Both the position numbers and the translations under genes were made by a program. 64,000 nt of DNA from Alphaproteobacteria bacterium (GTDB lineage Bacteria > Pseudomonadota > Alphaproteobacteria > Caulobacterales > Aquidulcibacteraceae), in assembly GCA_018969015.1 (NCBI GenBank), contig JAGWZE010000020.1, positions 1 through 64,000 of the forward strand, read 5' to 3'. The notes below the pieces were generated by a model. The model made no database searches, had not been told where the DNA came from, and saw only the letters and a program-made list of their open reading frames with translations. Positions 28,180 through 51,332 of the stretch are shown here, piece after piece. Numbering within the stretch: position 1 is the first letter of the stretch; every line of letters starts with the position of its first letter.

Positions 28180-28283
28180 AAGGCGCAGACAGGACGACGA
28201 CCCGACCGTAACCCGTTGCGGCTGCTTCCTTCCGGACCTGACCGGGTTGGCGGGGCGACCGTCCGCCGCCTGCCTGCGCCCCC
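28180..28283 (-). ncRNA. ffs: Signal recognition particle RNA (4.5S-type)
   Basis: The minus strand contains the universally conserved SRP apical loop CAGGTCCGGAAGGAAGCAGCC (core at about 28229-28249), the binding site for Ffh. The ends pair: GGCGCAGGCA at 28280-28271 matches TGTCTGCGCC at 28191-28182 in ten pairs including one wobble, closing one long hairpin of about 100 nt typical of the small bacterial SRP RNA. Ends are estimated from this stem. It lies between the 34-residue gene and def, convergent on the former. Confidence 0.93.
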
Positions 28284-46747: not shown

Positions 46748-46839
46748 CGTCATCCTCATCGCCGAAGGCGATGGGGATCCAGAAGCCGCAGCCCAAACGC
46801 CTGGATCCCCGGCCTCGCTCCGCGCGGCCGAGGATGACG
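46748..46839. repeat. Palindromic intergenic repeat (type C), copy 1
   Basis: CGTCATCCTC at one end pairs with GAGGATGACG at the other, with inner GGGGATCCAG against CTGGATCCCC. It shares this layout, including AACGCCTGGATCCCC, with the copy at 50671-50769, so it is a dispersed family. It lies between convergent GMC and PAS genes. Confidence 0.88.
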
Positions 46840-50615: not shown

Positions 50616-50636
50616 CCCTCCCCCAGCGGGGGAGGG
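50616..50636 (+). terminator. GC-rich hairpin after xseA
   Basis: CCCTCCCCC pairs perfectly with GGGGGAGGG around AGC, 33 bases after the xseA stop. No T-run follows, so it is terminator-like rather than a classical intrinsic terminator. The sequence resembles dispersed palindromic units. Confidence 0.45.
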
Positions 50637-50670
50637 TTGGGAGGGGGAGACGTGCGCCCACCTACCTCTC

Positions 50671-50769
50671 CGTCATCCTCGCCTCGCACCCCGTGCGAGG
50701 CGGGGATCCAGAATCCGCCGAACCAAACGCCTGGATCCCCGCCGCGCCTCCGGCGCGCCGAGGATGACG
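50671..50769. repeat. Palindromic intergenic repeat (type C), copy 2
   Basis: CGTCATCCTCG at one end pairs with CGAGGATGACG at the other; inner arms GGGGATCCAG and CTGGATCCCC match those of copy 1 at 46748-46839. It lies in the gene-free stretch after xseA. Confidence 0.88.
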
Positions 50770-50828
50770 CCGCGCGGATGTGGGATAGACAAAAACTAAT
50801 CCGCCCCCGGACGATCCCGCCGCATACT

Positions 50829-51210
50829 CGCCCCGTCGCTGCGACAGGGCGGTCTAGAACGTCGAGAACGCGCAGCGGATCGGTGAACGGGCTCGGAGAG
50901 GGTGACGCCTCGAAGAGTTGCGGTCAGGACCCGGGAAAACCTGCCTCGAGAGCAGGGTCGCCCCCGTGTGGGTGTGCGCGCCTATCTCAAGCCGGGTGAG
51001 GGCGAGCTCCGGCCTCGGGTCTCAAGGAGGAACGCGAACGCTGACGTACGCGCCGAAAACGTAGGCGACCAAATCAGCCAGTTGCCCCTCGCCGGGTTGA
51101 CCAAACCGGCGCGCCGAACGCGGCGGAGAGGCCGAAAGCCACTCCCCCCAAAGCATGCAAACCAGGGTCGGCCGACCCAGGCTCACGCCTCTCCGCCGCG
51201 TCCCTTTTTT
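50829..51210 (+). ncRNA. Candidate structured RNA ending at an intrinsic terminator
   Basis: The 749 bases between xseA and the thiolase hold no credible gene: third-position GC is far below that of neighbouring genes. From about 50829 the plus strand is rich in hairpins: CGCCC-c-GTCGC-t-GCGAC-a-GGGCG (50829-50851) and CCTGC/GCAGG (50940-50956), and it ends at a strong terminator (51118-51210). I see no tmRNA tag, RNase P core, T-box or known riboswitch motif. It could be a free-standing RNA or a long leader for the thiolase, but the terminator lies 122 bases before that start. A poor promoter-like CATACT lies at 50823. The 5 prime end is a guess. Confidence 0.45.
51118..51210 (+). terminator. 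Long-stem intrinsic terminator
   Basis: ACGCGGCGGAGAGGC (51118-51132) pairs perfectly over 15 bases with GCCTCTCCGCCGCGT (51187-51201), and is followed by CCC and six T (51205-51210). The 54-base loop contains a perfect 14-base palindrome, GGGTCGGCCGACCC (51165-51178). It would stop transcription arriving from upstream, before the thiolase gene. Confidence 0.75.
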
Positions 51211-51332
51211 CAGCTGAACCCGCAGGCGCGTGCAGCGCCGTGCGGCCAAACGTGTTTCCCGCCCCAGATGACGCCGCCCCGCGAGATCGCTATGTTCCGC
51301 CCCGGCTACGCGCACGAGAACGGAGAACGCTG

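What the first reader, a model, noticed from the sequence alone, without database searches (positions are those of the whole stretch)
50829..51210. Candidate structured RNA with a strong intrinsic terminator in an otherwise gene-free 749-base stretch
Seen: no frame has coding-like third-position GC; hairpins at 50829-50851 and 50940-50956; a perfect 15-base-pair stem (51118-51132 with 51187-51201) followed by six T, with a 14-base palindrome in its loop. Known: such a stem plus U-run marks an RNA 3 prime end. Inference: a free-standing RNA, or a leader that stops before the thiolase. It does not show the tmRNA tag, RNase P core or an obvious riboswitch.
Basis: partly seen in the sequence, partly recalled or inferred. 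Interest (0 to 1): 0.75.

Follow-up and report, generated by a model that had tools for sequence, protein, structure and literature searches.

The report
Sixteen-copy structured RNA repeat element
The gene-free stretch is one of about sixteen very similar copies, scattered through this one genome, of a non-coding repeat whose RNA folds into a large structure kept by matching base changes; no relative was found in the genomes and RNA libraries searched, and its function is not shown.

Summary
The window's genome holds 16 copies of its 3' end, 15 of the core and 13 of the 5' end. Compared with each other, the copies show compensatory changes in six helices, G-U wobbles that point to the + strand, a 68-column invariant core, and 1-base indels that leave no shared reading frame over the unit. 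So it is a structured RNA of about 375 nt ending in a long stem and U-run. It has no Rfam match and no accepted match in genomes sampled from its order, class and phylum. It sits beside a CGTC-type REP palindrome; in 12 of 13 copies the called upstream gene runs the same way; the neighbours are unrelated. Best reading: a lineage-specific, non-autonomous repeat cassette carrying a structured RNA, probably made as a 3' extension of upstream transcripts and ended at its own stem. Transcription, termination and mobility are inferred.

The parts
50671..50769 (.). CGTC-tagged REP-type inverted palindrome pair (CGTCATCC...GGATGACG) just upstream of the RNA unit
   Evidence: Inverted repeats I1, I2, I6; its right arm has 105 hits in the genome at up to 2 mismatches, some of them two arms of one pair; a like pair stands at 46748-46839, where no RNA copy was found
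50782..50816 (+). Conserved tract GGGATAGNCAAAAACTAATCCGCCCCCGGACGATC upstream of the fold; role unknown (promoter, junction or 5' RNA)
   Evidence: Nearly invariant in 13 copies; 14 genome hits to its last 27 bases, 13 of them joined to the RNA
50837..50877 (+). 5' domain: helix 50837-50843/50871-50877 enclosing hairpin 50853-50867
   Evidence: One hairpin pair is UA in 8 and GC in 5 of 13 copies
50891..50918 (+). Hairpin P_a, two stacked helices
   Evidence: Two pairs with double changes in each helix, all cells with letters paired
50921..51116 (+). Central domain closed by 50921-50924/51113-51116; holds the 68-column invariant core 50955-51022
   Evidence: Model R1; 15 full-length hits at 227-240 bits in the own genome; invariant run reached by 0 of 20000 shuffles
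50940..50956 (+).
   Evidence: CCTGC/GCAGG in 10 copies, CCCAC/GTGGG in 5
51040..51078 (+). Hairpin P_c, the most variable arm
   Evidence: Two strong pairs switched on both sides in 7 of 15 copies; three further pairs added by eye are weak
51118..51210 (+). 3' stem (15 bp plus inner helices, palindrome 51165-51178 inside), CCC, then T6: likely RNA 3' end
   Evidence: the 15 outer pairs kept in 15 of 15 copies, T-run 5-7 long
51216..51250 (.). 3' terminal tract of the repeat unit, GAACCCGC-AGGCGC...GCGCC-GTGCGGCCAAA
   Evidence: Shared by 16 copies, sequences diverge after it

Best explanation
It is one copy of a lineage-specific, non-autonomous, non-coding repeat of about 470 bp (50782-51250), usually attached to a CGTC-type REP palindrome, that encodes a structured RNA of about 375 nt on the + strand. 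SHOWN by sequence: about 16 dispersed copies, compensatory changes that fit the + strand, no reading frame shared over the unit, mosaic exchange between copies, placement mostly behind a co-oriented gene. INFERRED: the element spread within the genome as a passenger (REP-linked duplication or recombination, kept alike by gene conversion); the RNA is made mainly by read-through from the upstream gene, folds, and is ended at its stem/U-run, so that each copy acts as a portable 3' end (termination or protection of the upstream transcript, insulation from the downstream or convergent gene).
For: 16 copies by 3' end, 15 by core, 13 by 5' end. 13 of 102 pairs with double changes, in 6 of 18 helices, against a shuffle mean of 7.7 (1 of 500 shuffles reached 13) and 1-2 for slid structures; RNAalifold's own structure gave 7 of 90. 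G-U/A-U and U-G/C-G variants would be A-C mismatches on the other strand. 450 of 977 informative column pairs show all four allele combinations, so copies exchange pieces. Upstream gene co-oriented in 12 of 13 copies, its stop 203-363 nt before the RNA; a T-run of 4 or more lies upstream of the conserved tract in only 1 of those 12. No Rfam match at gathering scores.
Against: No expression data. No mobilising enzyme was identified (only PF01797 and PF00078 were searched); no terminal inverted repeats or target duplications were seen by eye; no empty site could be compared, because xseA-thiolase is not a conserved neighbourhood. The terminator has a 3-nt CCC gap before the U-run. In convergent sites either orientation looks co-oriented, so only co-directional cases are informative: 3 complete copies, all in the genes' direction, while one 5' part (L037) has an opposed upstream gene. 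The 50% null for 12 of 13 is assumed, not measured, and the gene calls rest on ORF length and third-position GC, with Pfam support for most. Compensatory blocks could partly come from hairpin-templated mutation spread by gene conversion. The count 'further standard pair types' is not above shuffles (468 of 500 at least as high). Three of the 13 double-change pairs (columns 220-222/248-250) I added by eye; they are unpaired in 5, 7 and 12 of 15 copies.
Confidence: 0.5

Rival explanations
1. A family of paralogous, independently transcribed trans-acting small RNAs, each with its own promoter in the conserved tract 50782-50825.
For: The tract is nearly invariant in 13 copies although it lies outside the fold; the core is far more constant than chance; a stem plus U-run fits an RNA end.
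Against: No sigma-70-like promoter found by the simple scan, and the best -10-like stretch by eye (CATACT) differs in one of 13 copies. The 12 of 13 upstream bias is not expected of free sRNAs. About sixteen very similar copies are unusual for a trans-acting sRNA (general knowledge).
Confidence: 0.22
2. A DNA-level repeat (like REP/BIME elements) with no RNA function: hairpins matter as DNA, or the element is simply selfish, and paired changes come from hairpin-templated mutation plus gene conversion.
For: It sits with REP palindromes; REPs are said to lie predominantly downstream of coding regions (PMC3733652 passages); copies exchange alleles; whole-stretch folding energy is ordinary.
Against: G-U wobble variants keep pairing only as + strand RNA. 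The 68-column invariant core is not one simple hairpin in the predicted fold.
Confidence: 0.2
3. The RNA serves the element's own movement, for example as a guide or scaffold for a recombinase or reverse transcriptase acting in trans.
For: Multi-copy, no shared frame, strongly conserved RNA core with variable arms; the host has one reverse transcriptase match.
Against: That reverse transcriptase scores best as a retron type XII RT-TIR in a defence library. No copy with a gene inside was seen, although copies cut by contig ends cannot be checked. No Y1 transposase match at E <= 1e-5. IS110-type recombinases were not searched.
Confidence: 0.07
4. A cis-regulatory leader of the thiolase gene.
For: It lies upstream of the thiolase in this copy.
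Against: Other copies precede unrelated or convergent genes.
Confidence: 0.01

Closest known systems
CGTC-tagged REP palindromes (PMC3733652; start of abstract and passages seen)
   Same: The upstream module has the CGTC tag, AT at the stem start and a CCA tail as described there (read by eye). As there, copies lie mainly between convergent or co-directional genes, and that paper knows no dedicated transposase for them.
   Different: REPs are described there as 20-40 bp; the stem here is longer than the 8-9 bp given, and the RNA unit (about 470 bp, 18 helices in my structure) is a different sequence attached to it.
Bacillus cereus group repeats bcr1-bcr18 (passages of PMC3446304; the original papers were not read)
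   Same: Families of intergenic repeated elements; in two strains 50.9% and 40.0% of the copies were seen in mRNA, in UTRs among other places; bcr10 and bcr18 have conserved RNA structure.
   Different: No sequence link was tested. The present unit is found so far in one genome only.
Bacterial MITEs such as ERIC, NEMIS and CIR (passages of PMC2229807)
   Same: Small dispersed repeats with structured transcripts; RNA effects on neighbouring mRNAs are proposed for NEMIS and ERIC.
   Different: Those are given as about 100-200 bp, most of the tabulated ones with terminal inverted repeats; this unit is longer, multi-branched, and shows no terminal inverted repeats by eye.
IS110 bridge RNAs (title and start of abstract only, PMC11208160)
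   Same: Structured non-coding RNA linked to mobile DNA.
   Different: No recombinase gene in the complete copies; the 3' stem/U-run does not belong to that design as I recall it. Not tested further.

Membership tests
Any Rfam 15 family | Score at or above the family's gathering score | tested here: not met
   None at this locus; best sub-threshold match overlapping the RNA is 17.4 bits against 42.5 (COG3860)
CGTC REP (upstream module only) | CGTC tag, palindromic stem, CCA-like tail, many dispersed copies | tested here: met
   Read by eye at 50671-50769; 105 hits in the genome to its right arm
CGTC REP (upstream module only) | Stem of 8-9 bp with a loop of 4-5 | tested here: not met
   Stem of 15 (93% complementary), 3 nt between the arms (I6); a longer-stem variant at best
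MITE / transposon-mobilised repeat | Terminal inverted repeats and target-site duplication | tested here: inconclusive
   None seen by eye in the alignments with flanks; the 5' border is blurred by the REP module and no empty site was available
RAYT-mobilised REP / REPIN | Y1 transposase (PF01797) in the genome | tested here: not met
   0 matches at E <= 1e-5; the control rang in 5 of 14 known genomes
Group II intron or intron relic | Match to a group II intron RNA model or an intron reverse transcriptase | tested here: not met
   No Rfam match; the only RVT_1 match scores best as retron XII RT-TIR
IS110-type element with bridge RNA | IS110 recombinase gene in the element or the genome | not tested
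   No gene inside the complete copies; the genome was not searched for the recombinase
Intrinsic terminator | GC-rich stem followed at once by a U-run | tested here: inconclusive
   15-bp stem, z -5.81, but CCC before T6 and 54 nt between the arms
Intrinsic terminator | RNA 3' end at the U-run | not testable with these tools
   Needs 3'-end mapping
Protein-coding repeat | Common open frame across copies | tested here: not met
   Each of six frames holds a stop in all 15 copies; the same span is read in different frames in different copies because of 1-base indels. A short minus-strand block between the indels reads alike in the listed segments of 14 of 15 copies but joins different ends

The most novel reading that the evidence does not exclude
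A new class of large, ribozyme-like structured RNA that multiplies inside a bacterial genome as a mobile cassette, using REP palindromes as landing sites, with its RNA needed for its own spread or for control of the roughly 16 host transcripts it ends.
Probability: 0.12. Interest if true: 0.85.

Novelty: new variant of a known kind. Interest (0 to 1): 0.5.

Why it matters
The dispersed bacterial repeats in the papers seen here are short: REPs of 20-40 bp and MITEs of about 100-200 bp. Here a REP-linked repeat carries a multi-branched RNA of about 375 nt, and its paralogous copies give covariation evidence within a single genome. That makes it testable whether such repeats act as RNA, for instance as portable transcript ends. 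It also shows that an apparent single-copy orphan RNA can be a repeat that breaks assemblies: in this 69-contig genome 17 pieces of it end at contig ends.

Tried and rejected
Rfam at gathering and relaxed thresholds: one SRP RNA elsewhere in the window, and only sub-threshold matches here. ARAGORN: no tRNA or tmRNA in the window. Thiolase leader: rejected by the neighbours of other copies. Protein-coding: rejected. On the minus strand, open segments of 73-75 codons occur in 13 of 15 copies, which looked like a conserved gene, but they are the same span read in different frames and give different peptides; a block reading about ...SARRFGQPGEGLL..IVAYVFGA... is open in the listed segments of 14 of 15 copies, between indels, with no shared ends; I take it as the reverse of arm P_c and did not test it further. 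Weak model hits in 4 of 397 other genomes of the order at E <= 0.01 (23.4-24.6 bits against 227-240): not accepted; three cover only model positions 113-166 and read like the DNVGDNVGDC stretch of membrane pyrophosphatase genes (motif recalled); the fourth (L046) covers the model with many gaps and was not followed up. A weak 18.1-bit hit in the own genome (C55, E 0.18) covers the same model part. The 37-nt BLAST hit in G054 looks like coding DNA by eye. An exact 20-mer of the core in the GTDB species set gave 2 hits; the model gives their loci 5.7 bits at best, and both look like coding DNA by eye. Autonomous partner: all 14 exact matches to the 3' motif are known RNA units; the two 1-mismatch matches are a 16th copy's end (C33) and an unrelated place (C12); the 5' motif has one RNA-less remnant, C65.

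Full report
What is there. First comes a CTCCCC-type palindrome (about 50617-50657, by eye). Then comes a CGTC-tagged inverted palindrome pair, 50671-50769, whose right arm has 105 hits in the genome at up to two mismatches, some being two arms of one pair. Searched as DNA, 50780-51215 gives 11 strong matches in the window's own genome, the ten others 91-98% identical to this one (only 11 candidates were scored), and one weak match among 60 relatives. With patterns and a covariance model I count 17 exact core hits; 15 of them are full-length for the model and two (C13, C23) are cut by contig ends. There are 13 copies of the 5' part plus one remnant without RNA, C65, and 16 copies of the 3' end: 14 exact, C20 with a changed end, and C33. 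Six copies are complete (C3, C24, C42, C52, C60, C67). The rest are cut by contig ends, so 'about 16' is a count of 3' ends; a few may be missing or collapsed.

Is it an RNA? Fifteen copies were aligned (A1; C13, C23 and C33 were left out as too short). RNAalifold found 90 pairs, 7 of them with double changes. I removed its pairs with the U-run and added helices seen by eye, which biases the count in my favour: 102 pairs, 97.9% of 1398 cells paired, 13 pairs with double changes in 6 of 18 helices. Shuffles average 7.7 (1 of 500 as high), and structures slid by 1-3 columns give 1-2. The measure 'further pair types' is not above shuffles (468 of 500 at least as high). Helix 13 is only 75.2% paired, because three of its pairs, added by me, are weak. 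Thirteen 5' parts counted apart (A3) give 99.6% of 247 cells paired, 5 pairs with double changes (26 of 500 shuffles reach that) and a covariation score no shuffle reached. G-U variants such as GU/AU and CG/UG pair only on the + strand. Twelve of 18 helices show no double change, so the core fold (for example 50959-51022) is a prediction only.

Selection or recency? In columns 95-389 of A1, 55 of 295 columns vary (gaps counted as a state), yet 68 in a row (50955-51022) do not; 0 of 20000 shuffles reach that. Alleles of the arms are reassorted: 450 of 977 informative column pairs show all four combinations, so copies exchange sequence. Gene conversion could therefore spread one compensated allele to many copies; cells are not independent events. 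By eye I estimate at least six independent compensated changes.

Coding. In the 15 copies every one of the six frames holds a stop. The longest shared open spans, 73-75 codons on the minus strand in 13 of 15 copies, are read in different frames in different copies and give different peptides, because of 1-base indels. A short minus-strand block between indels reads alike in the listed segments of 14 of 15 copies; it has no shared ends, and I do not take it for a gene.

Where it sits. Genes were called by ORF length and third-position GC. For 13 copies with a 5' flank, the nearest called upstream gene runs the same way in 12; L037 is the exception, and the C65 remnant is left out. Of 12 upstream ORFs sent to Pfam (L039, which is xseA, was not sent), 11 matched and L035 did not: CMAS, TerC, SecA, PQQ dehydrogenase, MFS transporter, SAH hydrolase, GST (the opposed gene of L037), peroxidase, ribonucleotide reductase, alanine dehydrogenase/PNT and fatty-acid hydroxylase. 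Downstream, 15 flanks were examined: the nearest called gene is convergent in 9, co-directional in 4 and not called in 2 (C33 was not examined); 12 of the 13 matched Pfam and are unrelated in function. The stop-to-RNA distance is 203-363 nt for the 12, with a T-run of 4 or more before the conserved tract in 1 of them. Under an assumed 50% chance, 12 or more of 13 has probability 0.0017 (worked by hand). Convergent sites cannot show the orientation, so the informative cases are few.

Distribution. Outside the window's genome the model found no match at E <= 0.001 in 384 other genomes of the class and 397 of the phylum, and at E <= 0.01 four weak ones in 397 of the order, which I reject; the samples overlap and only 6 candidates per genome were scored. 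BLAST of plasmids and phages found nothing at E <= 1e-5, nor did exact strings in viral contigs. In the GTDB species set an exact 20-mer gave 2 hits that I take for chance. Of 27 relatives' xseA loci none carries the thiolase within the DNA held, and the RNA and its flanks give only chance alignments of 21-30 nt there. The tool may leave the window's own record and near ones out of the public collections, so restriction to one lineage holds only at this depth.

How it likely works. Shown: a repeated, structured, non-coding unit whose pairing fits the + strand, mostly behind co-oriented genes. Inferred: read-through transcription gives a folded 3' extension that ends at 51118-51210. The stem is strong (z -5.81), but CCC separates it from the T-run, so efficiency is uncertain. 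The conserved tract 50782-50816 is not explained; it might be a promoter of an unrecognised type, the junction used in spreading, or 5' RNA.

Compared with what is known. The upstream palindrome fits the CGTC REP family of PMC3733652 (passages seen) in tag, AT start, tail and gene context, but not in stem length. [quoted passage not shown] The RNA unit resembles the structured intergenic repeats of the Bacillus cereus group (passages of PMC3446304) without being shown to be one. Full-text searches with five sets of terms showed, in their listings, no title or abstract start on such a REP-linked RNA unit; that is a narrow search.

Noticed in passing
L068 529-2403 (-), own genome C48 (RVT_1 match 94656-95279): The genome's only RVT_1 match at E <= 1e-5 is a 624-aa reverse transcriptase-TIR fusion that scores best as retron type XII in PADLOC (E 1e-157).
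   Followed up: partly
window 46748-46839: Another CGTCATCC...GGATGACG palindrome pair in the same window, with no copy of the RNA unit found there.
   Followed up: no
L043 (own genome C65, about 59597): A remnant of the upstream tract without the RNA, flanked on both sides by the same sequence in inverted orientation (looks like insertion-sequence ends).
   Followed up: no
window 28181-28278 (-): Bacterial small SRP RNA (RF00169, 63.1 bits), the only Rfam hit in the window at gathering scores.
   Followed up: no
window 50617-50657: CTCCCCC/GGGGGAGG palindrome, found also just upstream of several other copies of the unit; a further repeat family in the mosaic.
   Followed up: no
L034, L037, L041 upstream flanks: A nested CGTCATCCTGGCCCGC...GCGGGCCGGGA palindrome lies inside the REP pair in these three copies.
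   Followed up: no
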